DNA of 64,000 nucleotides from positions 62,001 through 126,000 of the forward strand of contig NZ_CANMEZ010000011.1 of assembly GCF_947496985.1 (NCBI RefSeq), read 5' to 3'. This document shows positions 4,836 through 64,000 of the stretch, in pieces (positions within the stretch are counted from its first letter, which is position 1; each line of letters starts with the position of its first letter). The DNA comes from an uncultured Kordia sp. (GTDB taxonomy: Bacteria > Bacteroidota > Bacteroidia > Flavobacteriales > Flavobacteriaceae). The position numbers and the translations under genes were made by a program. The notes beneath the pieces are model-generated. The model did no database searches. It saw only the letters and a list, made by a program, of their open reading frames with translations, and was not told the DNA's origin.

Positions 4836-5027
4836 AATTTTGAGTTTTGTATTTACGTTAGTGTATCTCAAAGCTACGATTATTTATAACTATATATCAC
4901 TGTAAAACAATGTCATATACGGACAATTGATCTATTGTCACAACTAAACACAGCTTTCATGCATGTATAAATGAAAAGAACTCCAGATACTTTAAAAAAA
5001 ATGTATTTTCGTATGTATATCATTTAC

Positions 5028-6728
5028 ATGAGATTAAAGCATTTTTATATTATTGCATATTTTCTACTAATTAGACTTCCTATATGCAGTCAAGAACAAT
5101 CTTTAAAGAATTTAGATTCTCTACTAAGAAGAGAGTTTAAAGAATTACGCACACAGTTTTATGACACAGATTCTGATAAGGACGCAAGTTTATATGCAGC
5201 TGCATATTTAAAAAAAGCCAAACAACTTCAAGATTCAAAAAAAATAATTGATGGTTATTACTATAAAGCCTTACTCAATTCTGATTCATTACGAACAATA
5301 TATATAGACAGCCTTATTCAACTTTCTTCAAAACGTACTGATCATTACTTTATGGAAAATGCGTTAGTAATAAAAGCTGGAGATTTTTTTCAAATTCAAT
5401 CCTATAAAGAAGCCTTAAACTTATATGTAAAAGCTCAGGAATACGCTAAGAAAAGTAATAATCATCTTATGCTATTTAATATTAATTATAATATTGGGAT
5501 TATTCATAACTTAATTGGGAATTATGAAAAAGCACTAAAAACACTGAAAAGATCACTAGTAAATTCAGAAACATTAGGATTTAAAGATAATTGGCGTCGC
5601 TTAAAAATAATATCAAGTATAATTACTTCATACAGGCAACTTAACATGAATGATTCTGTAACAATATTAGCTTCAAAAACTATTAAGGAAATTTACACAA
5701 ATCCAAAGTATAAAAATTTATACCATAAATTGGTTTTAAAACAAGGTATGAACTTATATGCACAACAAAATTATTCAGCTGCAAAAGATAGTATTCAAAA
5801 AACCGTTCATTATTTCAAAAATATACAAGATGATTCAAACTTGGCATATGCCTATTTTTATTTAGGTAAAACATATGTAGCTACTGAACAAAGAGAAAAA
5901 GCAATCAACTATCTAAAAAAAGTAGACTCTATCTTTCTAAAAGTAAATTATTTGTTTCCAGAAACAAGACCTACATATGAAATTTTAATTGACCATTACA
6001 AGAAGAAGAAAGATTCAGAAAAGCAACTTTTGTATATAGAACGCTTGTTAAAATTGGATAGCATTTTACATGATAAAGAATTATATCTAACCAATCGAAT
6101 TTCAGAAGATTACAACACACCTAGACTGCTAGCGAATAAAGAACAAATTATAACTTCACTTCAAAAGAAAGAACGTTCTTATTTCCTGGGTATTATTGGA
6201 GCAATCATCATTATTTTATTGATTGGCGGATTTCTGATTTATAATTATATCCAGAAAAAAATCTATAAAAAACGTTTTGAAGAACTCTTAAAAGCACAAC
6301 AAACCAAGAAGCAACATACTATTATTGATGTATCAGATGCTAAAAAAAATGAACTCAATATTCCAGAAGATATTATTAAAACGGTATTAAATAGTTTAGC
6401 AGTTTTTAAAGAAAATAATGAATTCTTATCATCAAATATTAATTTACAAAAATTAGCCAAACGTTTAAAAACCAATCATACTTATCTGTCAAAAATCGTA
6501 AATGTATATGAAGGAAAAAGCTTTAATACGTTTATGAATGATTTACGCATTGATTATACGATAGAACGTTTGCAAAACGATGCTGTTTTTAGAAAATATA
6601 CCATTGATGCGATTGCGGAAGAATCAGGTTTTAGTAATACACGAACATTTTCAAGATCTTTTCAACGAAAAACGAATTTAAATCCTTCCTATTTTATCAA
6701 AAACTTAAACGCTTCTTTCGAAAAATAG
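5028..6728 (+). CDS. TPR sensor - transmembrane - AraC-type DNA-binding regulator
   Basis: I prefer the ATG at 5028, which begins a clean signal peptide (MRLKHFYIIAYFLLIRLPICSQ), giving 566 residues; an in-frame ATG at 4971 would add 19. The N-terminal part (to about residue 370) is predicted periplasmic and made of TPR-like helices (MLFNINYNIGIIHNLIGNYEKAL). One transmembrane segment (FLGIIGAIIIILLIGGFLIYNYI) follows, then a cytosolic AraC HTH domain at the C-terminus (LQKLAKRLKTNHTYLSKIVN, FNTFMNDLRIDYTIERL, DAIAEESGFSNTRTFSRSFQRKTNLNPS). Such one-component regulators are common in Flavobacteriia. It sits between GG-leader precursor genes whose upstream regions share a sequence block, so it is a candidate regulator of them; that link is inference. 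Confidence 0.85.
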   Translation: MRLKHFYIIAYFLLIRLPICSQEQSLKNLDSLLRREFKELRTQFYDTDSDKDASLYAAAYLKKAKQLQDSKKIIDGYYYKALLNSDSLRTIYIDSLIQLSSKRTDHYFMENALVIKAGDFFQIQSYKEALNLYVKAQEYAKKSNNHLMLFNINYNIGIIHNLIGNYEKALKTLKRSLVNSETLGFKDNWRRLKIISSIITSYRQLNMNDSVTILASKTIKEIYTNPKYKNLYHKLVLKQGMNLYAQQNYSAAKDSIQKTVHYFKNIQDDSNLAYAYFYLGKTYVATEQREKAINYLKKVDSIFLKVNYLFPETRPTYEILIDHYKKKKDSEKQLLYIERLLKLDSILHDKELYLTNRISEDYNTPRLLANKEQIITSLQKKERSYFLGIIGAIIIILLIGGFLIYNYIQKKIYKKRFEELLKAQQTKKQHTIIDVSDAKKNELNIPEDIIKTVLNSLAVFKENNEFLSSNINLQKLAKRLKTNHTYLSKIVNVYEGKSFNTFMNDLRIDYTIERLQNDAVFRKYTIDAIAEESGFSNTRTFSRSFQRKTNLNPSYFIKNLNASFEK

Positions 6729-6962
6729 ATAGATTTTTTACTAATTTTCACCTAAAAAAGGACAATAGATCTATTGTCATACACACCATTTCACATTGTA
6801 AAGATTACTTTTTAAATTTGAACATCAATGTTTTAAAACTTAAACAAAAACAATTTTAAATTATTAAAAATCAATATTTTACACTTAAAACAAAATCTAA
6901 ATCCATATGAATTACTTAATCATAAAACAGCAACTGTCATTATATAAACTGACATAATAACC

Positions 6963-6995
6963 GTTTTTTTGACGTTATGTGTTTGTATAGTTTTA
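6963..6995 (+). promoter_or_regulatory. Promoter-like segment, second copy of the block at 4224-4256
   Basis: GTTTTTTTGACG is followed by GTGTTTGTATAGTTTTACTTCA, with TAGTTTTA at 6988-6995 as the -7-like element. It matches the segment upstream of 4284 in order and spacing and precedes the ATG at 7022. Confidence 0.45.
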
Positions 6996-7021
6996 CTTCA
7001 AGTTTAATCAAAACACATATT

Positions 7022-50724: not shown

Positions 50725-52911
50725 ATGATTTTTATCAAAAAACACATTCTATTTTCCTTATTAGTTCTCAGTTTTACTATACACATACACTCACAAAATA
50801 AAGTTATTGATAGCCTAAAAATAGTATTACAAAATCATCCTGAAAAAGATTCTACAAAAGTGGATATCCTAAATGATATTGCTTTTAAGTATATTGGAAT
50901 TGATCAAAATCAACTAAAAGAATACTCACAAAAAGCAAATATTTTAGCACAGGAAATAACATATACAAAGGGACATGCTAGAAGTTTATATGTAATTTTT
51001 ATCAGTCACATCTCTAAAGGTGAAATGGAAAAAGCTGAAACTTCTATTCATGAATCATTAAACCTTTACAAAACAATTAAAGATGAACTTGGAATTTCAA
51101 ATTGTTATGATGCAATTGGAAAATTAAATCAATACCTAGGCAACTATGATAAAGGTATAACATATCATCATAAGGCTATTGAAATTGCAAAAAAAGGAAA
51201 AGATCGAGAAAAAATTGCAGATTTTTCAAATGGTCTTGGGAGTGCTTACTACAGAAAAGGAGAATATGACAACGCACTGAAAGCCTACGAAAAATCATTA
51301 ATTATTTATGATAGTTTAAATGTAAAAAAGATCTATGGTATTCTAAACAATATTTCACTCATTTATAATCGCCAAGGCAGGTATTTAGAAGCCTTAAATA
51401 CATATCAAAAATGTTTATCAAACTTTAGAGAAAAAGGTGATAAAAAAGGGATTGCAATTACTTTAGCGAATATTGGTGCTATTTATATAAATATGGAAGA
51501 ATATGAAAAAGCACGACCGTATTTTTTAGAAGCTATTGAAATAGATACAGAATTAGCAAACAAAAGAAGAATTCCAAAAAGCATGATAAGTATTGGTAAG
51601 ATCTTAAAAAATGCAGAAGAATATGAAAAAGCTATTGATTATTATAATGATGCTTTATTATTATTTGAAGAAAATAACGATAAACAAGGCATATATTCAA
51701 CTTACTCTAATTTAGGAAGTTTATACTCAGAACAAGAAAAATATGACCTCGCTTTAAATTATTTAAAAAAAGCACTAGAGCTAAGTATTTCTTTAGGCAG
51801 AAAACGAGCTATTGGAGAATCTTATATTGATTTAGGTTTTAATTATTATAACTTAAAAAAGTATACAAAAGCGTTTGAAAATGTCAAAAAAGGTAAAGAA
51901 ATCGCTGATCAATTGGCACTATTAGAAGCTCAAAAAGATGCTAATTTGCTATTATCTAAACTTTACAAAAACAAAGGAGCATATAAAAAAGCATTAGAGA
52001 GTCATCAACAATTTAAAATAATGAGTGATAGTCTATTCAATAAAGAAAATATTCAAAAAATAACAGCCTTAGAATATGACTATAAATATAAACAAGAGTT
52101 AGATTCTGCAAAGATTACAGAATTAGAACTAAAAAAAACGGTGCAAATTACGACTCAAGATTTAAGGAAATCACAACAAAACTTACTACTTGGTATCATT
52201 GTATTTTTAGTCGTTGCTTTACTTATGGGAGCAATTATTTTCTTTTTACGATTGAGAAGTGAAAAAGCAAAAACACAAAATGTTATTGTGGAACAAAAAC
52301 TATTACGCTCGCAAATGACACCGCATTTTATTTTTAATTCACTATCTGTTTTACAGGGCATGATTTTAAATAAAGAAGAAAAAAACTCTGTTTCGTATCT
52401 CTCCAAATTTTCAAAACTTTTACGAACCATTTTAGAGAACTCGCGGCATAAAGTTGTTTCGCTTGCTGACGAACTCACAGCAATTAATGAATATATGGCA
52501 CTTCAAAATTTGGATGTAAATCCTCCATATAAATACAATCTTACTGTAGCTTCTGAGATAGATACGGATGCATTGAAAATTCCTCCAATGTTGATACAAC
52601 CGTTTATAGAAAATGCTGTAGAACATGCATTTCCAAATCAAAAAGAAAACAAACAAATTGAGGTATCACTTACGTTTGAGACTAAAAAACTAACGTGCAC
52701 AATTGTAGATAATGGAATTGGCATCAATCTAGAAAAACAAAAAGCGGAAAAAGATAAAAACTCGTTAGCTACAAAAATTACGGGAGAGCGTTTAAAAGTA
52801 TTGTCTAAAGATTTTAAAGCACAAGGAAGTCTTAGCATACAAAATAGAGCTACTATTGGAGAAAAAGGAACATTGATTACTTTAGTTATTCCTTATAGAA
52901 TAAAAGAATAA
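50725..52911 (+). CDS. TPR - membrane - LytS-type sensor histidine kinase (copy 1)
   Basis: A 728-residue protein with a signal peptide (MIFIKKHILFSLLVLSFTIHIHSQ), about ten TPR units to residue 430 (ISLIYNRQGRYLEALNTYQ, ANIGAIYINMEEYEKAR), one transmembrane helix (NLLLGIIVFLVVALLMGAIIFFL) and a His_kinase domain: LRSQMTPHFIFNSLSVLQ (phospho-accepting His) and N-box PFIENAVEHAFPNQ, then DNGIGI. Typical of the LytS family acting with LytTR regulators. The C-terminal half is nearly the same as that of the next gene. Confidence 0.92.
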   Translation: MIFIKKHILFSLLVLSFTIHIHSQNKVIDSLKIVLQNHPEKDSTKVDILNDIAFKYIGIDQNQLKEYSQKANILAQEITYTKGHARSLYVIFISHISKGEMEKAETSIHESLNLYKTIKDELGISNCYDAIGKLNQYLGNYDKGITYHHKAIEIAKKGKDREKIADFSNGLGSAYYRKGEYDNALKAYEKSLIIYDSLNVKKIYGILNNISLIYNRQGRYLEALNTYQKCLSNFREKGDKKGIAITLANIGAIYINMEEYEKARPYFLEAIEIDTELANKRRIPKSMISIGKILKNAEEYEKAIDYYNDALLLFEENNDKQGIYSTYSNLGSLYSEQEKYDLALNYLKKALELSISLGRKRAIGESYIDLGFNYYNLKKYTKAFENVKKGKEIADQLALLEAQKDANLLLSKLYKNKGAYKKALESHQQFKIMSDSLFNKENIQKITALEYDYKYKQELDSAKITELELKKTVQITTQDLRKSQQNLLLGIIVFLVVALLMGAIIFFLRLRSEKAKTQNVIVEQKLLRSQMTPHFIFNSLSVLQGMILNKEEKNSVSYLSKFSKLLRTILENSRHKVVSLADELTAINEYMALQNLDVNPPYKYNLTVASEIDTDALKIPPMLIQPFIENAVEHAFPNQKENKQIEVSLTFETKKLTCTIVDNGIGINLEKQKAEKDKNSLATKITGERLKVLSKDFKAQGSLSIQNRATIGEKGTLITLVIPYRIKE

Positions 52912-52941
52912 TGAAAAGTTGATCTAAGTAAATCACAACTA

Positions 52942-55137
52942 ATGAAATATCTCTACACAAAAGTCTTTTTCTTACTCATTTCAATGCTTTTTGCGATAAA
53001 TACCTCTGCTCAAAGTAGAGTAATTGATAGTCTAGAAACGATACTACATAATCACAAAAAAAATGATTCTACAAAGGTAAATCTATTAAATAAGTTAGCC
53101 TTTAAATACAAAAGTAATGATATTAATAAAGCTGAAGTTACAGTACAGGAAGCGAACAAACTAGCCAAAGAATTAGGTTTTATAAGAGGTGAAGCAAGAA
53201 GTTTTTTGGTATTGAGTTTTATGCATATAACTAAAGCTGAGTATGATGAAGCTGAAAATGATGCGCTACAAGCACTTAATTTATTTAAAAGTATTGACAA
53301 TAACTATGGAATTTACTCAGCATACAATGAATTGGGTTCTATTGCTGCATATAAAAATAATCTTGAAAAAGCATTAGCATACTACAAAGAAGCATACTTT
53401 ATAAATGAAAAAAGAGGAAACCTAAAAAACAAAAGTGTATTAATGGCTAACATGGGAAATATTGCTTATGCTAGAGGTAATTTTAACCAAGCTATTGCAT
53501 ATTATAAAAAAGCTATTATTTCAAGTGAAAAAGGAGGTTATGTAAGTTATACATTATCATACCAAAATAACTTAGCTGTAATTTATGGAAATCAAGGCAG
53601 AACATTAGAGGCATTAAAGTGTTTCCATAAAAGTTTAGACATCTATAGAAAAGAAGAGAATAAAAAAGAAGTTGCTTCTTTAACTAATAATATTGGTCTT
53701 ACTTATGGAGAAAGAGAAGAGTTTGATAAGGCACTACCCTATCTTGAAGAATCTTTAAAGTTAAATAGAGAGTTACAGGATAAACTAGGCATTGCTAGAA
53801 ATTTAGCTGGCATAGGAGCTATACTTATAGGTAAGAAAAAATATGACAAAGCATTAGAATATTTTGATGAAGTTATTCCTATATATGAAGCTATTGATAA
53901 TAAAGCTGGGCTCATGAATGTATATAATCATATTGGAGGTATATATATATCAAAAAATCAACCTAAAAAAGCCTTGGAGAAATATAAATTATGTCTTGAA
54001 TTAAGCTTATCACTTGGAGATCAAAAGAAAGAAGGGTATTCATATGTAAGTCTTGCGGAAGCATATCTTATGTTAAAAAAGTATGATAAAGCGATAGAAT
54101 ATGGTCATAAAGGACAAATGATTGCTCATTTATTAGATATCTTAAAGCAACAAAAAGATGTCAGTATCACACTATCTAAAGCTTATGAAGCAACAGGACG
54201 CTATAAAGAAGCATTGGCAGATTATAAAATTCACAAAAAAATAAATGACAGCCTTTTTAATAAAGATAACATTGAAAAAGTAACACAATTAGAATATGAC
54301 TACAAATACAAACAAAAATTAGATTCTGCAAAAATCACAGAACTAGAACTTAAAAAAACAGTACAAACCACGACTCAAGATTTAAGGGAATCACAACAAA
54401 ATTTACTACTTGGGATCATTGTATTTTTAGTCGTTGCTTTACTTATGGGAACAATTATTTTCTTTTTAAAATTAAAAAGCGAAAAAGCGAAAACACAAAA
54501 TGTTATTGTCGAACAAAAATTACTACGCTCGCAAATGACACCTCATTTTATTTTTAACTCGCTTTCTGTATTACAAGGCATGATTTTAAATAAAGAAGAA
54601 AAAAGCTCTATTTCTTATTTGTCTAAATTTTCAAAACTTTTACGAACTATTTTAGAAAATTCAAGACATAAAGTAGTTTCACTTGCTGATGAACTCACGG
54701 CGATTAATGAATATATGGCACTTCAAAATTTAGATGTAAATCCTCCCTATAAATACGATCTTAAAGTAACTTCAGAAATAGATACGACTGCATTGAAAAT
54801 TCCACCAATGTTAATGCAACCTTTTATAGAAAATGCAGTAGAACATGCATTTCCAAACCAAAAAGAGAATAAACAAATTGAGGTAACACTTACGTTTGAA
54901 GCTAAAAAACTAACGTGCACGATTGTAGATAACGGAATTGGCATCAATTTAGAAAAACAAAAAAATCAACGAAATAAAAACTCGTTAGCTACCAAAATTA
55001 CGGAAGAGCGTTTAAAAGTATTGTCCAAAGATTTTAAAGTACAAGGAAATCTTAGTATAAAAAATAGAGTAACTTTTGGAGAACAAGGAACATTGGTTAC
55101 TTTAGTCATTCCATATAAAACAGATTTAATAGCATGA
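52942..55137 (+). CDS. TPR - membrane - LytS-type sensor histidine kinase (copy 2)
   Basis: A 731-residue paralogue of the preceding gene, 30 bases downstream. Same order: signal peptide (MKYLYTKVFFLLISMLFAINTSAQ), TPR units, one helix (NLLLGIIVFLVVALLMGTIIFFL), kinase domain (MTPHFIFNSLSVLQ; PFIENAVEHAFPNQ; DNGIGI). The kinase halves differ at few positions, while the TPR sensor halves differ much more, so the two sense different inputs but should address the same regulator. The stop overlaps the response-regulator start (ATGA). Confidence 0.92.
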   Translation: MKYLYTKVFFLLISMLFAINTSAQSRVIDSLETILHNHKKNDSTKVNLLNKLAFKYKSNDINKAEVTVQEANKLAKELGFIRGEARSFLVLSFMHITKAEYDEAENDALQALNLFKSIDNNYGIYSAYNELGSIAAYKNNLEKALAYYKEAYFINEKRGNLKNKSVLMANMGNIAYARGNFNQAIAYYKKAIISSEKGGYVSYTLSYQNNLAVIYGNQGRTLEALKCFHKSLDIYRKEENKKEVASLTNNIGLTYGEREEFDKALPYLEESLKLNRELQDKLGIARNLAGIGAILIGKKKYDKALEYFDEVIPIYEAIDNKAGLMNVYNHIGGIYISKNQPKKALEKYKLCLELSLSLGDQKKEGYSYVSLAEAYLMLKKYDKAIEYGHKGQMIAHLLDILKQQKDVSITLSKAYEATGRYKEALADYKIHKKINDSLFNKDNIEKVTQLEYDYKYKQKLDSAKITELELKKTVQTTTQDLRESQQNLLLGIIVFLVVALLMGTIIFFLKLKSEKAKTQNVIVEQKLLRSQMTPHFIFNSLSVLQGMILNKEEKSSISYLSKFSKLLRTILENSRHKVVSLADELTAINEYMALQNLDVNPPYKYDLKVTSEIDTTALKIPPMLMQPFIENAVEHAFPNQKENKQIEVTLTFEAKKLTCTIVDNGIGINLEKQKNQRNKNSLATKITEERLKVLSKDFKVQGNLSIKNRVTFGEQGTLVTLVIPYKTDLIA

Positions 55138-55871
55138 AAGCAATAATTGTAGAAGACAAAGAGCATATTCGTAAAGCATTGGTACATATATTAGCTTCTA
55201 TAGATGCCGAAATTATGGTTATTGGCGAATGCGAATCTGTACAAGAAGCCGTTGTGGTTTCCAATGCTTGTAAGCCCGATTTAATTTTTTTAGATATCAA
55301 TCTGACTGACGGGACAGGTTTTGATTTTTTAGACAAAACCGAACACCTCAACTTTAAAGTTATCTTTATTACAGCTTATGAAGAATATGCATTGCAAGCA
55401 CTAAAAATTGGCGCTGTAGATTATCTTTTAAAACCTGTAGATGTTGAAGAACTCAAAATAGCTTTAAAAAAGGTAAGCAAATTGTCTGTTGACACACAAA
55501 AACAACAAATAAAGACTGCAAAAAAAGTGTTAGATAATGATGGAAATACGCTAATTTTATCACTTCAAGATTCGTTTCATGTCATTGATTTAAAAGATTT
55601 AATGTATTGTGAATCTGATAAAGGGTATACTACTTTTTATTTAAACAATGGTAAAAAACATCTTGCTTCGAAATCAATAAAGGAATTTGAAGAACAATTG
55701 ACTAAACACTCGTTTACAAGACCACATCAATCATTTATCGTTAATCTGAAATTTATTGAAAAATATGATAAATCAGGAACGATTCACTTAAAAAATGGAA
55801 AGAAAATCCCCGTTTCTTCTCGTAAAAAAGACAACTTCATAACACGTCTTTTCTCTTGGAATAAAGGATAA
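55134..55871 (+). CDS. LytTR family response regulator
   Basis: A 245-residue two-domain regulator. The receiver domain has the acidic pair (IVEDKEHIRK), phosphorylated Asp in DLIFLDINLTDGTG near residue 54, FITAYEEYA and LLKPVDVEEL (Lys). From about residue 140 a LytTR DNA-binding domain follows (LKDLMYCESDKGYTTFYLNNGKK, FTRPHQSFIVNLKFIEKYDKSG, IPVSSRKKDNF). Coupled by a 4-base overlap with kinase copy 2. Target genes are not known; the small lipoprotein and precursors downstream are candidates. Confidence 0.93.
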   Translation: MKAIIVEDKEHIRKALVHILASIDAEIMVIGECESVQEAVVVSNACKPDLIFLDINLTDGTGFDFLDKTEHLNFKVIFITAYEEYALQALKIGAVDYLLKPVDVEELKIALKKVSKLSVDTQKQQIKTAKKVLDNDGNTLILSLQDSFHVIDLKDLMYCESDKGYTTFYLNNGKKHLASKSIKEFEEQLTKHSFTRPHQSFIVNLKFIEKYDKSGTIHLKNGKKIPVSSRKKDNFITRLFSWNKG

Positions 55872-56674: not shown

Positions 56675-56902
56675 ATGAAAAAACAAAATTTGAAAAATTT
56701 GAAATTAAACAAAAACTCTATTTCAAGCTTAGAAGTAACAACTATTTCAGGAGGAAGATTCACATGGATTAATAATACTGAATGTTGCGATAGCAGAAAT
56801 CCACGCATTTGTGAAGTGCCAAAATCAGCTGAGTGTATTCCAGTTACAGCAGTTGGATGTGTAACAAACCAAGTAAATACGAATACAGTTCCTATTTGCT
56901 AA
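56675..56902 (+). CDS. GG-leader Cys-containing precursor
   Basis: A 75-residue precursor with leader MKKQNLKNLKLNKNSISSLEVTTI and site SGG at residues 25-27. The core (RFTWINNTECCDSRNP...) contains six Cys including a CC pair, and ends TVPIC. Pairs with the next precursor, whose leader is nearly identical, 77 bases downstream; a long hairpin lies between them. Confidence 0.82.
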   Translation: MKKQNLKNLKLNKNSISSLEVTTISGGRFTWINNTECCDSRNPRICEVPKSAECIPVTAVGCVTNQVNTNTVPIC

Positions 56903-56979: not shown

Positions 56980-57168
56980 ATGAAAAAACAAAATTTAAAA
57001 AGTTTAAAACTAAACAAGAACTCTATTTCTAATATTCAATCAAAAGAGAATACTGGAGGTCATAGACCAAACACTTGGACTTCTTACTGGGCATATTGTG
57101 AAACAAACAATCCTATTCAATGTAGATCAATGAAACATACAGGTTGTTTTTGTAATGCTAATAGTTAA
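56980..57168 (+). CDS. GG-leader Cys-containing precursor, short
   Basis: A 62-residue precursor, leader MKKQNLKSLKLNKNSISNIQSKEN, site TGG (residues 25-27). Short core (HRPNTWTSYWAYCETNNPIQ...) with four Cys and three Trp/Tyr early, ending CFCNANS. Followed by a terminator at 57191. Confidence 0.8.
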   Translation: MKKQNLKSLKLNKNSISNIQSKENTGGHRPNTWTSYWAYCETNNPIQCRSMKHTGCFCNANS

Positions 57169-57590: not shown

Positions 57591-58238
57591 TTACTCCAAA
57601 ATAATTACATCATCCGCACGGATAAGACGCGGTTTGTCCTTATCAAATGCTGGAAACTGACTGGTAAAGGTTGATTCGTCCGTGATGGTTTCTTCATCTA
57701 CAGAATCACCAAATGTGTATCCTAAACCATATTCTGTTAGTAGTGTTTTTATTTCTGCAAACGTTCTTTTATCTGTATCATTTTTATAGATAAGATTCGG
57801 TAAAAAACGAATAATTTGTGCATCTGTCGGTGGCACAGGAACAATATCAAATTGTATTTCTGCCGTAGCATTTAATCCTAAATTGTATTTATTTGTGTTT
57901 GATGCATTTACAGGTGTAGCATACATTTTTGGTCGAAATGCTCTCCCGTTTTGAATAGTACTTCCTGTGCTTTGTTGCGAAATTGACAATGAAATTTTTG
58001 CTTTTGCTGTTGTTTTCGGAATGGTATAAAATGTAGGTTGATACCCTACTTCTCGTAGCATTTTTAAGGTTTCAGAACCTTTATTCGGATCACTATTATA
58101 TATTTCTAATGTTTGTCTTAACGAACCTTCGTCAAGTGCTGCTTGCGCTTCTCCAACGCCTTCTCCTATAGAAGCAATAAAATCTCCTAGTGGCGCCGCA
58201 AAGGCATCTTTTACATAATCATATGAATTGCTTGACAT
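57591..58238 (-). CDS. Core-domain protein with PASTA-like C-terminus (operon last gene)
   Basis: A 215-residue protein without signal peptide. It opens APLGDFIASIGEGVGEAQAALDEGSL, the helical start shared with the genes at 61857, 62351 and 63325, then GYQPTFYTIPKTTAKAKISLSIS and AEIQFDIVPVPPTD, the two beta blocks of the shared core. The last 80 residues (LPNLIYKNDTDKRTFAEIKTLLTEYGLGYTFG...RADDVIILE) look like a PASTA unit. Unknown function; last gene of the operon, 7 bases after its neighbour. Confidence 0.65.
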   Translation of the reverse strand: MSSNSYDYVKDAFAAPLGDFIASIGEGVGEAQAALDEGSLRQTLEIYNSDPNKGSETLKMLREVGYQPTFYTIPKTTAKAKISLSISQQSTGSTIQNGRAFRPKMYATPVNASNTNKYNLGLNATAEIQFDIVPVPPTDAQIIRFLPNLIYKNDTDKRTFAEIKTLLTEYGLGYTFGDSVDEETITDESTFTSQFPAFDKDKPRLIRADDVIILE

Positions 58239-58245
58239 ATCTTTT

Positions 58246-59769
58246 TTAGTTTATTGGTTTTGCAAAAATTACTATTACTTCTTGTCCTTCTTCCACTCTT
58301 TCTTTTGGTGCTGGCGATTGTTTAAATGACTGTCCAGCAATCAGATTCGTGTCTTTTGTAGAATGATAAATTGCATCTAGTTTTAATCCGTTATTCGTTA
58401 ATACTTTTCTAACGGCAGTTTCTGTTAATCCAAGAATATTTGGCATTTTTTGACCTTCATTTATCGTTGTTGTAGCTGTTGGCACAATATCAATACTAAT
58501 ATCACTAATGGCCGCACTATTCACATCTTTGGCGGATTCATAATCTAACAAACCAAACACAGTTCCTTCCGGACCTTTTTCAACAGTAGTTTTCAAATTT
58601 AAAGACACATTGGCTAGTTTATATTTTGAATTGCCCAACTCTTCATCTGCTTTTATCACATCTTTTACAATACTTCCGTAGACTTTACTCGCCGATAATT
58701 TATTAGGATGAGCAGTTACTGTAAAATCTTTTACTTCCTCCAATTCTCGTTGCAAAACTTCTTTATCTTTCTTTAACGTTTTAATGAGTAATTCTTTGTT
58801 TTGTAATTCTTTGTTTTTTACGGTTACCAATGCTTTTTCTTGCTTTACTTCATTTTGTAACTGAGAAATACTTGTTAGAAACGCTGTCTTTTCTTGGTTT
58901 AAATTGTCTCGCTCTATGGTAATATCTACGACTTGCTGTTGCAAGCTGTTTTTATCTATATTGATACTGACAACTTCTTGCTGTAAATCGTTATATAAAA
59001 CTTCAAAATTACTTCCATTTACATTTACTGCTTCCATTGCTTCAATTTGCTCGCGTTGTGCTGCCAATTGTGTTTCTAAAGTAGTTTGGTTTGCCTGAAG
59101 CGTTTCTATCTGTAGTTTTTCATTAGCTAAATTAGCCTGTAATGTTTGCATGTTCGCATTCAAACTTGAAACTTCTTGATCTCTAATCGTAATATCATTT
59201 CTTACAGTTGCAAGTTCATTACTCAATGTTTCACGATCATTAGACAATGACGCAATTGTAGTATTCAAACCTGCAATTTGTGCTGTTGCTTCGTCTTTTT
59301 GTGCCGCTATTTCTTTAATTGAATTTGCCAATTCAAACATTGGAACTTCTGAAGCAATCACTACATGATCTTCTTTCGTTACATATGACTCTTTTTTGAG
59401 CAACCAACTTTTACCAAAATCAATTACAAGTTTGTCTTCTCCTGAAATTGTTGTTTTAAAGTTAGATGCAATGACTTCTGGAATTCGACTTTCTTTACTG
59501 TCTTTGATAATTCTGAATGAAGGTGTTCCTCCAGATTTTAAAACTTCACGTACAATACGAATAGTCTGATCTTTTGTAGAAATTCTAGATGGAATTGTCA
59601 ATTGATGCGCTAATTTTCCTTTTGTTAATGTCAATGAATCTGTCAATGACATCCACGATTTTACATTTACATTGTAAAACTGTACAATTACGGATACATT
59701 CTTCACTGCCGTGTTTGACGCATCAAGTAGCGAATGTCCGAATTGAATATATTTTATACTTACTGCCAT
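58246..59769 (-). CDS. Coiled-coil protein with shared core and C-terminal PASTA domain
   Basis: A 507-residue protein without signal peptide or membrane helix. Residues 1-115 are a beta-rich domain (IKYIQFGHSLLDASNTAVKNVSVIVQFYNVNVKSW). Residues about 125-345 are a long coiled coil (IAGLNTTIASLSNDRETLSNELATV...). Residues 380-435 have the shared core words KLANVSLNLKTTVEKG and ISDISIDIVPTATT, and the end is a PASTA domain (MPNILGLTETAVRKVLTNNGLKLDAIY...GQEVIVIFAKP). PASTA units usually bind peptidoglycan outside the cell; here nothing exports the protein by Sec. Confidence 0.7.
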   Translation of the reverse strand: MAVSIKYIQFGHSLLDASNTAVKNVSVIVQFYNVNVKSWMSLTDSLTLTKGKLAHQLTIPSRISTKDQTIRIVREVLKSGGTPSFRIIKDSKESRIPEVIASNFKTTISGEDKLVIDFGKSWLLKKESYVTKEDHVVIASEVPMFELANSIKEIAAQKDEATAQIAGLNTTIASLSNDRETLSNELATVRNDITIRDQEVSSLNANMQTLQANLANEKLQIETLQANQTTLETQLAAQREQIEAMEAVNVNGSNFEVLYNDLQQEVVSINIDKNSLQQQVVDITIERDNLNQEKTAFLTSISQLQNEVKQEKALVTVKNKELQNKELLIKTLKKDKEVLQRELEEVKDFTVTAHPNKLSASKVYGSIVKDVIKADEELGNSKYKLANVSLNLKTTVEKGPEGTVFGLLDYESAKDVNSAAISDISIDIVPTATTTINEGQKMPNILGLTETAVRKVLTNNGLKLDAIYHSTKDTNLIAGQSFKQSPAPKERVEEGQEVIVIFAKPIN

Positions 59770-59772
59770 GAC

Positions 59773-60477
59773 TTATTTTTGAATTGAGATTTTAGTGAGT
59801 ACATTTCCAACATTTACTTCTATAATAAGAATGTTTCCGTTTGCAAAGTCAACACCATCAACTTGCACTTGTATTGTTGCTTTTCCATCTGAATCTGTGC
59901 GAATTTCGCTTGTGCCTAAAAATGATGTGCCATGATTTAATGTTGCGCTCGGATTTAGCAACTCTGTCTTTGTTTGATTGTAATTGAATTCAACCAACGC
60001 ATCCGATATTTTTTCGCCGGCAGCGTTAAATACCTCAACATCTATATCATAAATGTGAATATTTGATGTTGCTTTTGGCGTTGCATTGATAATCATTTGT
60101 GGTAAACCTTCATTAGGAACCACTGCAATGAATCGCCCAGAAATTGTACTCGTTACTTTGTTTGTTTCTTTCGTATCCGTTGTGGTGTTTGCAACTGGTT
60201 TAAAGGCTAAAGCTCTTTCATATCCTTTTTGATATGAACGTGCATACGGAAGCGATTCTGGACTTTGAGAAGTCTGTATTTCTGAACTTATTTCTTTTTC
60301 AAATTCGGCTTCTACTTGCAAGTTAAAATCCAAATATGGTAAGGTATATAATGTGTTTGGTCTTCCAAATTCATCATAAGGTTTTACATTCCTGAGATGA
60401 TTTTGTGCTTCATTCAAACTATCGGAAATTCCCAATAGGATTTGCTTTAGCGTTAATGCGTTATTTGCTGTGCTCAT
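59773..60477 (-). CDS. Core-domain protein with Ig-like extension
   Basis: A 234-residue protein. Residues 1-120 follow the shared plan: QILLGISDSLNEAQNHLRN, TLYTLPYLDFNLQVEAEFEKE, and TSTISGRFIAVVPNEGLP. Residues 125-234 look like a bacterial Ig-like (Big-type) domain (DIDVEVFNAAGEKISDALVEFN...SDGKATIQVQVDG...ILIIEVNVG). No signal peptide. 3 bases separate it from the coiled-coil gene. Its kinship with the other core proteins is weaker than among those at 61.8-64 kb and is my reading by eye. Confidence 0.6.
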   Translation of the reverse strand: MSTANNALTLKQILLGISDSLNEAQNHLRNVKPYDEFGRPNTLYTLPYLDFNLQVEAEFEKEISSEIQTSQSPESLPYARSYQKGYERALAFKPVANTTTDTKETNKVTSTISGRFIAVVPNEGLPQMIINATPKATSNIHIYDIDVEVFNAAGEKISDALVEFNYNQTKTELLNPSATLNHGTSFLGTSEIRTDSDGKATIQVQVDGVDFANGNILIIEVNVGNVLTKISIQK

Positions 60478-60488
60478 TGTGTATATTT

Positions 60489-61853
60489 TTAAAATGAGAA
60501 ACTGTCTTTTTTATTCTTTGCTTCATTCAAAATCCCAATACCCTTTTTGATATTTTTAATGGTTTTGATCGCATTGATTGCAACATTTAACTTCTTGTTG
60601 GCAACATTAAAGTTTGTTGTTTCTTCTTTTTTTGTTTGTTGTTTTTGAATAAAATCAAAATCGAAAGCATCTTTCGTTTTGGCATCTTTTATGCTGATAA
60701 AATCGACTGCTTTGAGTTTTTTCTGAAATAGACTCGTTACTGCTTGTGTTTTTTCCAAATGCTTATTGGCAGTATTAAATACTTTATCAACTTTTTTTAT
60801 TTTGTTACCAACTTTATTGACAATTTCAGTTCCTTTGGTTAGTTTTTTACTCAATGATTTTAATTCAGGAGAAGCAACTACGGAGTTTAGTTTTTCAATT
60901 CCAGTTTGAACATCATTTCCAGTTTTCTGAATGGTCTGAAACGTATGGTTTGCTTTTTTTGCTTTTTTGGTAACTTTTTGAAAATTTTCAAGGTGTTCTG
61001 AAGCTTTTTTAACGACGGGTTGTACAGTTGCAATCGGCTTTGACTTTGTTGTATTCGTCACAAAATCATGTAATTTTTCTTTGCTTTTTGTAACTACTTT
61101 AGCAACCTCTTTCTTGCGTTTTTGTTGTGCGCCAATTACATCAGTAACTTTGCGTTTAGCGATTGTTTGTAAACCTGTTTTTTCTTGCCTTTTTGGGTTT
61201 TGCTTTTTTTCCTTTTGGGTTGATTTTTTTGGTTTTTGTATAAAATCGTCTATACTTTTAGCTGCTTTTTGAATCTTTTCACCATATTCAATAATCGTTG
61301 TCGGTTGATTTTTTTTCTTGGCAACTCGATTTGGTTGTTGAACTTTTTTTTGAGTTTTCGGAAGTTTCGGAAGCGTTACAACAAGATTTTGCGTTTTCTT
61401 CTTATGTAATAATTCTGTGTTAGGTTTTGCTTTTTTCCTTTGTTCAGCAATAGAAGGAACTGTTGATTTTTTTTTCTTTTTTTGCGTAAAAGAAGGTGTT
61501 ACGTCCCAACGTTCATCTTGTTTTTTTCGATGATTTTCCTTTCGTTTTTGTCGCTTTGCTGCGGCTGCTTTTTCTTCTTTTTTCTTCTGATCAATCGTTT
61601 TTATATCATTCTCATACCTTTTATCAGTATTTGATGCTGTCCTTTTCCCTGTCAGTTCTGCCATTTGATCTTCAAGCTGTTTTTGCTCTTCAATCAATGA
61701 CTTCAAACTCGAATTAAATTCGGCTACATCTTCTAAAGACTTGTCAGATGATTTTCTTTCCTGAGAAAGTAACGAACCAATATCTTCTAGTTCCTTATCT
61801 TCCTTTTTCGGAGTTTCTTCTTTTTTAACAAAGCTTTTCCAATGTTTAGCCAT
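60489..61853 (-). CDS. Lys-rich coiled-coil-like structural protein
   Basis: A 454-residue, extremely basic and low-complexity protein (long runs such as KKKEEKAAAAKRQKRKENHR, TPSFTQKKKKKSTVPSIAEQRKK, TKKAKKANHTFQTIQKTGND). It begins MAKHWKSFVKKEE, then is Lys/Gln/Thr/Ala-rich, becoming helical later (DVQTGIEKLNSVVASPELKSLSKKL...), and ends DSFSF. No motif. Composition suggests a scaffold or polyanion-binding backbone. The only operon member without the shared core. Confidence 0.65.
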   Translation of the reverse strand: MAKHWKSFVKKEETPKKEDKELEDIGSLLSQERKSSDKSLEDVAEFNSSLKSLIEEQKQLEDQMAELTGKRTASNTDKRYENDIKTIDQKKKEEKAAAAKRQKRKENHRKKQDERWDVTPSFTQKKKKKSTVPSIAEQRKKAKPNTELLHKKKTQNLVVTLPKLPKTQKKVQQPNRVAKKKNQPTTIIEYGEKIQKAAKSIDDFIQKPKKSTQKEKKQNPKRQEKTGLQTIAKRKVTDVIGAQQKRKKEVAKVVTKSKEKLHDFVTNTTKSKPIATVQPVVKKASEHLENFQKVTKKAKKANHTFQTIQKTGNDVQTGIEKLNSVVASPELKSLSKKLTKGTEIVNKVGNKIKKVDKVFNTANKHLEKTQAVTSLFQKKLKAVDFISIKDAKTKDAFDFDFIQKQQTKKEETTNFNVANKKLNVAINAIKTIKNIKKGIGILNEAKNKKDSFSF

Positions 61854-61856
61854 CTT

Positions 61857-62345
61857 TTATTGATTTGAAGTTGTTGCTTGTCTTTTACTTTCCAATTCGT
61901 TTTGAATCATTGCCTGTAAACGTTGTTCAAAAACTGGTGGATTTGGAACGGTTACTAGTTTGGTTCTAACTAATGAACTTGCTTCTGCGGAGTACTGATA
62001 TTTTTGTGAATAGCTTGCCGAAACGGAAGCACTTACGGCTGCAAAGCCTACATTAAATCCTGCACTTACCGAAACGGAAGCTCCAAATTCTTTAGATTCC
62101 ATCATGGAAACAGACATTTTACATTCAAAAAATGTATCTACAAATTGGTAAAAGGTTGGTGTAAAGCCTAATGATAGTAAGCTATATTCTTCACCGCCCA
62201 TTTCTACTTTGGTATTTACGAGTTCTTTTGCCAAGTCCATTGAAACTCTGTCCAAAGCCTGTTGCGCTTTCGCGATCCCTACACCCAGAGATTGGATCAT
62301 CTCTGGTAAGGGTGCGTTTTGTATTTCTCTGGTGATTCTACCCAT
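61857..62345 (-). CDS. Core-domain paralogue (minimal form)
   Basis: A 162-residue protein showing the core cleanly: IQNAPLPEMIQSLGVGIAKAQQALDRVSMDLAKEL (helical start), LLSLGFTPTFYQFVDTFFECKMSVSM (beta block 1), a Ser/Val/Ala-rich variable stretch, and YSQKYQYSAEASSLVRTKLVTVPNPPVFEQRL (beta block 2). It aligns without large gaps to the genes at 63325 and the truncated one at 63886, so it can serve as reference for the family. Unknown function. Confidence 0.7.
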   Translation of the reverse strand: MGRITREIQNAPLPEMIQSLGVGIAKAQQALDRVSMDLAKELVNTKVEMGGEEYSLLSLGFTPTFYQFVDTFFECKMSVSMMESKEFGASVSVSAGFNVGFAAVSASVSASYSQKYQYSAEASSLVRTKLVTVPNPPVFEQRLQAMIQNELESKRQATTSNQ

Positions 62346-62350
62346 GGATA

Positions 62351-63295
62351 CTAGTTTTCAGCTTCTTCTCTAGCAATTTCCATTTGTTGCTGAATACGTT
62401 CTTCCAACGCTGCTGGTGGCGGAATTGGAACAAGCTTCGTTTGTAACAAACTCGATCCTTCTGCTGAATAACTATATTTCTGAGAAAAATTAGCATTCAC
62501 CTGTGAAGTGGTTACTGTATTATTGGCTTTTAAACCTCGTCTCCAACTAAAACCAATACTTCTATCCGTGCTTTTAGTATTTCGCTTGTATTCATGAGAA
62601 GATGAACCCTCTCTTGTAAACTTGATCGTAATTGCCACTTTTATGATCGTATCTACAAATTGATAAAAAGTTGGAGCAAAACCAAGTTCTAGCATTGATA
62701 GACGTTGAGGAAGAAATATTGTTCTTTCAGTGGTACCTGGCACTAACATTTTTTTCCCAGCAATTGTTTCTGGTATTTCCTTTCCCGGAGTATCATCTAA
62801 CCTTACATATGCACTATTTTCTGAATCATATTTATAAAACGTAGTAGTTGGAGATTGCCCTGAGGTTACATGTCTATAATATACACCCGCATTTTTTTCA
62901 TTATCAGGTGTAAACTTTGTATTTGCATCACTTGGTGCCCCAGTAACTTTTACAATTGGTCTATCAAAAGCTGGCTCTGTTTCTCCATCTTGAAGTTTAG
63001 ATTCAATAGATGCTCTATACGCTTGATCCGTGTTTGAATTGTATAATTCGACAGCATCTGATAATTGTAATTTTTCCTTTCCGAAAAATACACGACTGTC
63101 TTTGAAGTTGATAAATTCTTTACCGTTAATTTCTGATTTGACAGGACTTAATCCGCCCATCATTTCTGCTACTTCGATTGAGTTAGAGTCTAACGCCATT
63201 TGTGCATTGGCAATAGATGTTGCCATACTCTCAATCATTTTTCCCATAGGTACATTTAGTAATTCCTGTCCTATTTCTGGATTTTTATGAAACAT
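62351..63295 (-). CDS. Core-domain paralogue with large insertion
   Basis: A 314-residue paralogue: LLNVPMGKMIESMATSIANAQMALDSNSIEVAE at the start, then an insertion of about 135 residues (FINFKDSRVFFGKEKLQLSDAV...GKKMLVPGTTERTIFLPQ) before LELGFAPTFYQFVDTIIKVAITIKF, and YSAEGSSLLQTKLVPIPPPAALEERI near the end. The insert looks like an autonomous domain with polar, Asp/Glu/Lys-rich strands. Follows the same order as its neighbours; 5 bases lie between the stop and the next ATG. Confidence 0.7.
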   Translation of the reverse strand: MFHKNPEIGQELLNVPMGKMIESMATSIANAQMALDSNSIEVAEMMGGLSPVKSEINGKEFINFKDSRVFFGKEKLQLSDAVELYNSNTDQAYRASIESKLQDGETEPAFDRPIVKVTGAPSDANTKFTPDNEKNAGVYYRHVTSGQSPTTTFYKYDSENSAYVRLDDTPGKEIPETIAGKKMLVPGTTERTIFLPQRLSMLELGFAPTFYQFVDTIIKVAITIKFTREGSSSHEYKRNTKSTDRSIGFSWRRGLKANNTVTTSQVNANFSQKYSYSAEGSSLLQTKLVPIPPPAALEERIQQQMEIAREEAEN

Positions 63296-63324
63296 ATTTT
63301 TTGTTTTTGTTTAATTTGTTAATC

Positions 63325-63879
63325 TTATTTTTCTATGGTTGATTTTAATATTTCAAAATAAATATCAGGTGCTGGCAAAGACACTATTTTTGCCGCAATT
63401 GATGATGAGCCTTCTGCCGATGTTGAATATTTACGTGCATAATGTGCTGATATAGAAACTCCAAACATTTGTGTAGATTTGGAATCTTTACTCGTACTAA
63501 TAGCACTTGTAGTACTGCCCGAAGTATTACTCGAAGTGTTGCTATTGCTTCCACTTATGTTGCTACCTGAGCTACTGCCTTTTCCAAAGCTGAATCCTAA
63601 TGCGCCTCCGTAGCTTTCAGATTCAGCCATAGAAAATTCCATTTTCATTTCTACAGAAGCTTCTGTAAAAGCATAAAATGTTGGTGCAAAACCAAGGCTT
63701 AATAAATTATATTCTTCATCGCCTATATTAATTTTTACCGCAGCCAATTCATTTGCTAACCGAATAGAATTTGCATCTAACGCCGATTGCGCATTCGCAA
63801 TTGACATTCCGAGCTTTTCCAACATCATCGGCAATGGAGCATTGGTAATTTGTTGTATTACTTTAGGCGTTGTACTCAT
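63325..63879 (-). CDS. Core-domain paralogue with Ser/Gly/Asn-rich middle
   Basis: A 184-residue paralogue, from the ATG at 63879 (a TTG one codon upstream also opens the frame). It has ITNAPLPMMLEKLGMSIANAQSALDANSIRLANEL, LLSLGFAPTFYAFTEASVEMKMEFSM, then a Ser/Gly/Asn/Thr-rich stretch (KGSSSGSNISGSNSNTSSN) and ARKYSTSAEGSSSIAAKIVSLPAPD. The low-complexity stretch sits where paralogues vary most. Confidence 0.7.
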   Translation of the reverse strand: MSTTPKVIQQITNAPLPMMLEKLGMSIANAQSALDANSIRLANELAAVKINIGDEEYNLLSLGFAPTFYAFTEASVEMKMEFSMAESESYGGALGFSFGKGSSSGSNISGSNSNTSSNTSGSTTSAISTSKDSKSTQMFGVSISAHYARKYSTSAEGSSSIAAKIVSLPAPDIYFEILKSTIEK

Positions 63880-63885
63880 CAATAA

Positions 63886-64000
63886 TTAGTTTGAAGTTGT
63901 AGTATTATTTGTCAAAGACTGAATGTAGTTTTCTAATGCTGTTGGTGGCGGTACAGAAATCATTCTAGCTGACACTGAAGCGTTTCCTTCTACAGACATG
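63886..64000 (-). CDS. Core-domain paralogue, C-terminus only (runs past window end)
   Basis: An open minus-strand frame enters at 64000 and ends with the stop at 63886-63888: MSVEGNASVSARMISVPPPT then ALENYIQSLTNNTTTSN. It matches the end of its neighbour (SAEGSSSIAAKIVSLPAP). The rest lies outside the window, so the operon has at least one more gene. Confidence 0.7.
   Translation of the reverse strand, partial: MSVEGNASVSARMISVPPPTALENYIQSLTNNTTTSN

What the first reader, a model, noticed from the sequence alone, without database searches (positions are those of the whole stretch)
57591..64000. Operon of serial paralogues with a shared unnamed core and differing additions
At least eight minus-strand genes follow one another with gaps of 3 to 29 bases. 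Four (61857, 62351, 63325 and the cut-off 63886) are clear paralogues with the order: helical 'PLPxMIxxLGxxIAxAQxALDxxS', then 'LLSLGFxPTFYxFxDxxxEMKM', then a variable piece, then 'YSAEGSSxxxxKLVxxPxPP'. Three more (57591, 58246, 59773) seem to keep the same two beta blocks and add PASTA-like or Ig-like domains or a coiled coil. None has a signal peptide. This looks like components of one large assembly, or a kit of parts with exchangeable middle domains. I recognise no known system.
Basis: partly seen in the sequence, partly recalled or inferred. Interest (0 to 1): 0.78.

Follow-up and report, generated by a model that had tools for sequence, protein, structure and literature searches.

The report
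Ten-gene cassette of serial hairpin-protein paralogues
A set of ten neighbouring genes, at least five of them variations on one small protein with extra parts of which one has been swapped between strains, is found as an intact block in scattered bacteria and probably builds one unexplained protein machine that may grip cell walls.

Summary
The eight genes are the downstream part of a ten-gene minus-strand operon (the cut gene and two more run beyond 64000) in a Kordia-like genome. Of 21 loci found elsewhere, 18 carry all ten genes in the same order; the other 3 are cut by contig ends. No flanking gene family is shared by more than 4 of the 21. Profile comparison shows the core in five of the ten genes and links it to DUF2589, whose genes also occur as serial paralogues. 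A model of moderate confidence gives helix, long beta hairpin, helix, with the variable piece at the hairpin tip. In p605 the tip carries an OmpA-type domain, in an insert swapped between lineages; p507 and half of the p215 orthologues scanned carry PASTA. None of the ten has a membrane segment by hydropathy. Best reading: one heteromeric particle made in the cytoplasm, with exchangeable wall-binding heads, perhaps used in conflict. Assembly, wall binding and function are inferred.

The parts
57591..58238 (-). p215, last gene of the operon: core plus PASTA-like C-terminal part
   Evidence: core profile E 1.8e-19; PASTA above cut-off in 5 of 10 orthologues scanned; the window's own copy scores no Pfam family; shares strand + PASTA with p507 (E 9.9e-9)
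58246..59769 (-). p507: N-terminal region, coiled coil of varying length (orthologues 422-606 aa), possible degenerate core, PASTA
   Evidence: PASTA E 2.5e-9 above cut-off; alignment; lengths
58258..58449 (-). PASTA domain of p507
   Evidence: Pfam PF03793, residues 440-503 of the 506 aa scanned
58720..59337 (-). coiled-coil stretch of p507 (approximate)
   Evidence: coiled-coil-type matches to SMC-like models over this stretch
59773..60477 (-). p234: possible degenerate core in the N half, weak Ig-like C half
   Evidence: alignment; Big_1 in 11 of 20 members, best E 0.0024; core not significant
60489..61853 (-). p454: very basic, fast-evolving protein (113 K+R, 56 D+E; mean identity 29%)
   Evidence: no Pfam family
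61857..62345 (-). p162: shortest core protein, used for the model
62214..62309 (-). p162 long N-terminal helix (aa 13-44)
   Evidence: AlphaFold2 model, block pLDDT 71-85; helical amphipathy p=0.003
62091..62153 (-). p162 hairpin strand 1 (aa 65-85)
   Evidence: beta alternation p=0.029
62007..62090 (-). p162 variable piece at the hairpin tip (aa 86-113)
   Evidence: pLDDT under 50; variable column block
61947..62006 (-). p162 hairpin strand 2 (aa 114-133)
   Evidence: beta alternation not significant, p=0.34
61866..61937 (-). p162 C-terminal helix (aa 137-160)
62351..63295 (-). p314: core with an extra piece (roughly 80-140 residues in different orthologues, by eye) before the long hairpin
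   Evidence: hhalign to p162 E 4.1e-43; sequences
63325..63882 (-). p185: core with a Ser/Gly-rich tip
   Evidence: hhalign to p162 E 6e-43; sequence
63886..64000 (-). C-terminal end of p605 (gene runs on to C11:127703, outside the window): core split by an insert holding an OmpA-like domain
   Evidence: full gene (OmpA 30.4 bits, cut-off 27.2); insert exchange

Best explanation
The ten genes encode one heteromeric protein assembly made in the cytoplasm. Its building block is a DUF2589-like unit: a long helix, a long two-stranded beta hairpin and a C-terminal helix. Serial paralogues take fixed places in it. Each carries its own addition at one of three positions: before the hairpin (p314), at the hairpin tip (p185, p605) or at the C end (p215, and p507 if it holds a core). 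The coiled-coil p507 and the basic p454 serve as spacer and scaffold; p353 and p180 as assembly adaptors. The OmpA and PASTA parts are wall-binding heads. As no export signal was seen, the particle meets peptidoglycan either after release by lysis or inside a damaged cell, and I think it is used in conflict between cells or with invaders. Shown: operon, co-inheritance, core homology in five genes, OmpA/PASTA parts, exchange of the p605 insert, patchy distribution. Indicated but without a tree: horizontal spread of a short form between phyla. Inferred: physical assembly, subunit places, the roles of p353, p180, p454 and p507, peptidoglycan binding, conflict function.
For: Block conserved: ten genes in the same order in 18 of 21 loci; 156 of the 162 gaps in these are under 40 bases, range -50 to 179. 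The other three are cut by contig ends; p180 is detectable by tblastn in all three, broken in L016, an open frame in L030 that my gene caller had missed. Of 187 flanking ORFs no family is shared by more than 4 of 21 loci. p353 was found in 4 of 395 family members, the same four genomes that hold the full core set. Gene distances over 19 operons correlate with p162 at r 0.84-0.96 for the eight other genes and 0.89-0.91 for the core halves of p605, but only 0.57 for its insert. Operons 69-96% alike in eight other genes differ to 18/27/19% in the three insert segments while the core halves stay at 83 and 71% (L019/L020); distant operons (36-81%) share the insert at 66-69% (L019/L022). The pattern TD...N..L...R of wall-binding OmpA domains is kept in 22 of 22 p605 orthologues (that its Asp and Arg bind diaminopimelate is recalled from OmpA/Pal work). 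PASTA in p507 and in 5 of 10 p215 orthologues scanned. No membrane segment by hydropathy in any of ten.
Against: No direct evidence of a complex. The model is only moderately confident (mean pLDDT 63, pTM 0.43) and an earlier one with 18 sequences failed (41.7). The five-gene form has no recognised OmpA or PASTA part (nine of its proteins from two sources scanned), and DUF2589 genes stand in a row in an archaeon (one passage), so wall binding is unlikely to be the core's general role. p234 and p507 do not show the core significantly. In the window's own p215 PASTA is not recognised. No toxin, lytic enzyme, NTPase or peptidase scored above a cut-off among the ten, only sub-threshold names such as Ntox25 in 3 of 76 core-set members (best E 0.012; not followed); so a conflict function rests on distribution and head exchange alone. 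Tight linkage alone could give the high distance correlations.
Confidence: 0.4

Rival explanations
1. A cytoplasmic sensor/adaptor module of a biological conflict system, related in design to Trypco/Pepco adaptors: hairpin proteins polymerise on detecting wall fragments or an invader and recruit an effector encoded elsewhere.
For: Same order of parts (helix, beta block, beta block) as Trypco2 (by eye, sequence). PMC7159879 (passages seen) names Trypco1/2 as neighbours of trypsin-like peptidases and lists OmpA and PASTA among wall-associating domains of iSTAND conflict systems. A DUF2589 trio lies near an ORF that looks like a trypsin-like protease in G212 (by eye). Pepco scores E 0.1 in 2 of 76 members.
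Against: No NTPase or peptidase family above a cut-off in the block and no constant neighbour. No Pfam Trypco match in the proteins scanned. No PADLOC model except coiled-coil matches in p507. Trypco2 was found in 2 of 118 genomes, not in the window's own.
Confidence: 0.25
2. Cell-envelope or cytoplasmic structural complex with an ordinary housekeeping role (scaffold, stress), kept as an accessory operon.
For: OmpA and PASTA modules and coiled coils are common in envelope proteins (recalled); A. fulgidus DUF2589-related genes AF0414-AF0417 respond to growth substrate (PMC3949148, one passage seen).
Against: Core rare and patchy: 4 of 395, 6 of 11 in the genus; short form on a plasmid in another phylum; no membrane segments by hydropathy.
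Confidence: 0.17
3. Tandem duplicates with separate functions and no joint assembly.
For: Serial paralogues can arise by duplication; DUF2589 genes are also found as pairs and triplets.
Against: Fixed order of paralogues and non-paralogues alike, strict co-occurrence of p353, no shared flanks.
Confidence: 0.1
4. A remnant or divergent form of a phage-tail-like or T6SS/eCIS injection particle.
For: Wall-binding parts without signal peptides, a coiled coil of varying length, one significant structural match in a viral catalogue (A0A516MP19, E 4.7e-6, TM 0.52, rmsd 8.5, no name available), and a PHROG minor-head-protein match over the coiled coil (E 1.2e-6).
Against: No sheath, tube, baseplate or tail family in Pfam (ten proteins), NCBIfam (seven) or PHROGs (ten). 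TssC model PF17541 is absent from 11 of 12 genomes examined, the window's own included (eCIS and other sheath models were not searched). No relative of the core in phage records or IMG/VR by sequence.
Confidence: 0.08

Closest known systems
DUF2589 (Pfam PF11655) genes and their clusters
   Same: Core and DUF2589 align over 143-156 columns from end to end (E 1.9e-7 and 4.3e-7 with 21 DUF2589 sequences; 6e-6 and 4.6e-5 with 28; reversed controls 0.012-0.3). Serial paralogues there too: several matches over the cut-off in a row in G212, G076, G244 and the Kordia-genus genome G396; in two Vibrio, a Burkholderia and a deltaproteobacterial plasmid one match with a neighbour judged alike by eye or by annotation.
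   Different: No hit to the Pfam model; ten genes instead of two or three; adds OmpA, PASTA, coiled coil, L7/L12-like and TPR-like members. Weaker comparisons: nine Kordia-genus sequences gave E 5e-4, prob 31%, over 58 columns, and another pair of alignments matched only in the helix (43 columns, E 3.4e-5).
Trypco1/2 adaptors of VMAP/MoxR conflict systems (PMC7159879, passages seen)
   Same: Small; order helix - beta - beta in Trypco2 by eye.
   Different: No sequence match; no peptidase, vWA or MoxR partner here.
iSTAND conflict systems with OmpA/PASTA wall-associating parts (PMC7159879, passages seen)
   Same: OmpA and PASTA parts are among those systems' domains.
   Different: There these parts typically follow a membrane segment; here there is none by hydropathy, and no STAND NTPase.
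Contractile injection systems (T6SS, eCIS)
   Same: Cytoplasm-made parts with wall-binding modules and no signal peptide (recalled for eCIS).
   Different: No sheath, tube, baseplate or ATPase gene found in the block.

Membership tests
DUF2589 (PF11655) | score over Pfam's cut-off | tested here: not met
   no match in the window proteins nor among the families listed for 76 members of A2 at E<=1 (25 of 34 families shown)
DUF2589 (PF11655) | homology by profile-profile comparison over the whole domain | tested here: met
   E 1.9e-7 to 4.6e-5 over 143-156 columns, reversed controls 0.012 or worse; but 58 columns at E 5e-4 and only the helix
DUF2589 (PF11655) | same fold | not tested
OmpA-like domain (PF00691), in p605 | model score over cut-off and conserved Asp/Arg pattern | tested here: met
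   30.4 against 27.2 bits; TD...N..L...R in 22 of 22
PASTA (PF03793), in p507 | model score over cut-off | tested here: met
   37.4 against 23.2 bits
PASTA (PF03793), in p215 | model score over cut-off | tested here: inconclusive
   met in 5 of 10 orthologues scanned, not in the window's own copy
Ribosomal L7/L12 C-terminal domain (PF00542), in p353 | model score over cut-off | tested here: inconclusive
   matched at E<=1 in 13 of 17 members, best 2.8e-5; window genome's copy 13.6 against 25.9 bits
Trypco2 (PF19631) | sequence match | tested here: not met
   no match in 7 window proteins at E<=1 or 10 related proteins at E<=10; own genome has no Trypco2
Trypco2 (PF19631) | shared fold | not tested
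   no Trypco2 structure was compared
VMAP / iSTAND conflict systems | NTPase and effector genes in the operon | tested here: not met
   no such family above a cut-off among the ten proteins (Pfam; PADLOC); no constant neighbour
T6SS / eCIS / phage tail | sheath, tube and baseplate genes in the locus | tested here: not met
   (one head-protein PHROG over a coiled coil); TssC absent from own genome
known anti-phage systems (PADLOC-DB) | model match | tested here: not met
   only coiled-coil matches in p507, best E 4.5e-6
FliF RBM3 / ring and pore proteins with long hairpins | structural match | tested here: inconclusive

The most novel reading that the evidence does not exclude
A class of protein machine not yet described: a ring, shaft or pore assembled from non-identical paralogous hairpin subunits in a fixed order, whose hairpin tips are sockets for exchangeable heads (here a wall-binding head traded between lineages). 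DUF2589 clusters in bacteria and archaea would be its simpler relatives, so that one structure would explain an uncharacterised superfamily.
Probability: 0.28. Interest if true: 0.87.

Novelty: new variant of a known kind. Interest (0 to 1): 0.62.

Why it matters
The finding turns an annotation desert (eight of the ten proteins score no Pfam model above its cut-off in the window's genome) into a defined, portable system with a testable anatomy, and ties it to DUF2589, for which a search of the held library found one paper, with a passing mention. The natural exchange of the p605 head between otherwise similar operons suggests selection on what the tip binds. One structure of the complex would test the assembly claim and say what a large uncharacterised superfamily builds.

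Tried and rejected
Structure of p162 with 18 orthologues failed (pLDDT 41.7); 76 paralogues gave a usable but moderate model. Foldseek against PDB gave nothing significant (best E 0.4). Many of its weak rows are ring and pore proteins with long hairpins, which may reflect only the hairpin shape; the FliF rows of the second look have rmsd 8 to 13. Neither is used as evidence. The viral library gave one significant match, A0A516MP19 (E 4.7e-6), unnamed, whose sequence and neighbours I could not reach. Sequence searches of phages and IMG/VR with the core found no relative; a DUF2589 query found only an unverified 4-kb faecal scaffold and nothing in IMG/VR.

The idea that p234, p507 and the short-form coiled-coil proteins hold a degenerate core stays unproven (E 0.005-0.5). 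A Trypco2 profile could not be built: two sequences were found and a plasmid search gave none. The idea of a T6SS accessory was dropped: TssC is in 1 of the 8 operon-bearing genomes and 0 of the 4 without the operon, so it is not needed. A hit in G490 (E 3.8e-4, five stops inside) was judged chance and is not counted as an operon. PDB sequence searches with core, DUF2589 and p353 queries gave nothing convincing. PHROG, NCBIfam and PADLOC matches of p507 were judged coiled-coil artefacts. Sub-threshold toxin names in Pfam for core members were not followed. Two adjacent peptides (56675, 56980) were tested against NCBIfam without a match. Three of five paper searches gave nothing on this system. 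In one search the set meant to be enlarged with plasmid DUF2589 sequences was not, by a pattern error, so it equals the 21-sequence set; one search repeated it with 28.


Full report
What is there. The window is C11:62001-126000 of a 5.48-Mb assembly; the closest locus in the named scan is Kordia jejudonensis (99% in p162). The finding's genes are confirmed, with gaps of 3-29 bases. The adjoining stretch shows that the operon has ten genes, C11:129331 down to 119591: p353, p180, p605, p185, p314, p162, p454, p234, p507, p215 (named by length in aa). Beyond 57591 come two short peptide genes on the other strand.

Families. In Pfam the ten proteins give two matches above a cut-off: OmpA in p605 (30.4 bits, cut-off 27.2) and PASTA in p507 (37.4, cut-off 23.2). 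NCBIfam, run on the seven window proteins, gives none above a cut-off. Over orthologues, p353 resembles the L7/L12 C-terminal domain (E<=1 in 13 of 17 members, best 2.8e-5), p234 weakly Big_1 (11 of 20, best 0.0024), and PASTA is over the cut-off in 5 of 10 p215 orthologues, after the core. p180 has only weak TPR matches. PADLOC gives matches only to p507's coiled coil; PHROGs give a minor head protein over the same coiled coil (E 1.2e-6) and weaker matches of mostly unknown function.

Core. hhalign of ortholog alignments unites p605, p185, p314, p162 and p215; p605 matches in two halves around its insert. p507 shares its last strand and PASTA with p215 (E 9.9e-9 over 86 columns). p234 and the rest of p507 are not significant.

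Conservation of the block. One scan of the species-genome collection gave 21 loci. In 18 of 21 all ten genes stand in the same order and strand; 156 of their 162 gaps are under 40 bases. L016, L024 and L030 end inside the operon. tblastn finds p180 in all three (in broken pieces in L016) and p353 in two; p215 is missing where the contig ends. Among 187 flanking ORFs of at least 80 aa, no family (blastp E<=1e-5, over half covered) occurs at more than 4 of the 21 loci. In Flavobacteriaceae the core was found in 5 of 397 genomes, one of them a chance-like hit with five stops, leaving 4; p353 was found in the same 4, of 395 searched. In the phylum sample the core was in 4 of 395, the window's own and three of family f18; in f18 it was in 3 of 86; in the genus in 6 of 11. 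Each of the eight bearers shows seven core matches.

Short form. Two unnamed f18 genomes (a family of 1.5-3.3 Mb genomes in the same phylum; perhaps Chlorobi-like, which is inference) carry in a row a 99-aa gene, two core genes, a 170-aa gene and a coiled-coil gene; a third f18 genome shows the two core genes on a short contig. The plasmid pSna507_unt10 of Sphaerotilus sulfidivorans carries the same five, all annotated as hypothetical: its small gene is 31% identical to the f18 one (E 1e-11) and its first core gene 76.9%. This indicates horizontal spread between phyla; no tree was built.

Relation to DUF2589. The window's own genome has a DUF2589 gene on another contig in a three-gene row. Core against DUF2589 profiles of 21 sequences: E 4.3e-7 over 144 columns, 1.9e-7 over 156 with p314 added, in the expected order of parts; reversed profiles 0.012-0.095, unrelated or unproven operon families 0.089-0.95. 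With seven more divergent DUF2589 members the values are 4.6e-5 and 6e-6, reversed 0.12-0.3. Weaker results: E 5e-4 with nine genus sequences and a helix-only match, E 3.4e-5. I take this as homology. DUF2589 genes stand as pairs or triplets in several genomes of the phylum and, partly judged by eye, on Vibrio, Burkholderia and deltaproteobacterial plasmids; a row AF0414-AF0417 is mentioned for Archaeoglobus in PMC3949148 (one passage seen). In Burkholderia the pair overlaps a lysozyme-like ORF, and in G212 a trio stands near a protease-like ORF; both labels are by eye.

Shape. AlphaFold2 with 76 paralogues: helix 13-44, short hairpin 46-55, strand 65-85, a low-confidence stretch, strand 114-133, helix 137-160; mean pLDDT 63, blocks of 65-85 in most of the ordered part, pTM 0.43. 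The variable piece of the finding is the tip of the long hairpin. The roughly 440-residue insert of p605 and the Ser/Gly-rich stretch of p185 are at this tip; the extra piece of p314 comes before it; PASTA follows the core in p215. Strand 1 and both helices show the expected amphipathy (p 0.029, 0.003, 0.041); strand 2 does not (p 0.34). No solved structure matches significantly. One unnamed viral entry matches (E 4.7e-6, TM 0.52, rmsd 8.5); I could not follow it.

Exchange of the head. Pairwise identities in p605 segments: L019 against L020, whose eight other compared genes are 69-96% alike, are 83% in the first core half, 18, 27 and 19% in the insert, 71% in the last half. L019 against L022, whose other genes are 36-81% alike, share the insert at 66-69%. 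Over 19 operons gene distances follow p162 at r 0.84-0.96, the insert only at 0.57. Both alleles hold an OmpA-like domain, and the pattern TD...N..L...R is in 22 of 22. So the insert is traded as a unit between operons.

Reading. The strict block, the paralogous core with position-specific additions, wall-binding parts without any export signal seen, variable-length coiled coil, basic protein and patchy distribution fit one cytoplasm-made heteromeric particle with exchangeable heads. I put a single assembly at about 0.7, wall binding at about 0.5 and a conflict role at about 0.35; about 0.40 for the statement as given, judged as mostly right. The parallel to conflict systems is from PMC7159879 (passages seen) and PMC10907252 (passages seen): Trypco adaptors beside trypsin-like peptidases, and OmpA and PASTA parts in iSTAND systems. 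Membership in those is not met, since no NTPase or effector gene belongs to the block.

Novelty. Paper searches of the held PMC library: DUF2589 gave 1 paper, trypco2 gave 2, a combination of PASTA, OmpA, Tenacibaculum, operon and unknown function gave 5, one of them PMC7159879 and the others by title on different matters, Pepco/Trypco1 nothing relevant by title in the 10 of 189 listed, Kordia and filaments nothing on this operon by title in the 10 of 58 listed. Passages of a Kordia bloom proteome paper (PMC12172471) mention T6SS proteins and have no hit for PASTA or OmpA. Within that limit I found no description of the operon. Because its core belongs with DUF2589 clusters I rate it a new variant of a known, uncharacterised kind.

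Noticed in passing
window 56675-56902 and 56980-57168, + strand; similar pair on G000:C2 743103-743728: Short tandem peptide genes with a shared leader that looks by eye like a RiPP or bacteriocin precursor leader; no NCBIfam match for the window pair.
   Followed up: partly
window 50725-55871, + strand: Two consecutive, similar TPR-histidine-kinase genes (728 and 731 aa) followed by a LytTR-type response regulator, upstream of the peptide genes.
   Followed up: partly
L085 (G212:C45 28103-33282): Three serial DUF2589 paralogues followed by two similar ~130-aa ORFs and a protease-like ORF (by eye); may be a protease-linked relative of the system.
   Followed up: no
L113 (Burkholderia stagnalis plas1) 4995-7009: Two DUF2589-type genes, the second overlapping a lysozyme-like ORF (by eye) by 17 bases, suggesting one operon.
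   Followed up: no
L111 5899-6174, L114 5833-6108, L115 6915-7199: A similar 91-94 aa ORF shortly after the DUF2589 pair in two Vibrio plasmids and a deltaproteobacterial plasmid; unnamed third member of that cassette.
   Followed up: no
BFVD entry A0A516MP19: Unnamed viral-catalogue protein of 178 aa whose predicted structure matches the core model along its length (E 4.7e-6, 19% identity).
   Followed up: partly
L009 12273-13328 (p353): Protein seems by eye built of several repeats resembling the L7/L12 C-terminal domain; Pfam support below cut-off in the window genome's copy.
   Followed up: partly
A2 members (core set): Sub-threshold Pfam matches with toxin names, such as Ntox25 in 3 of 76 members (best E 0.012); probably chance.
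   Followed up: no
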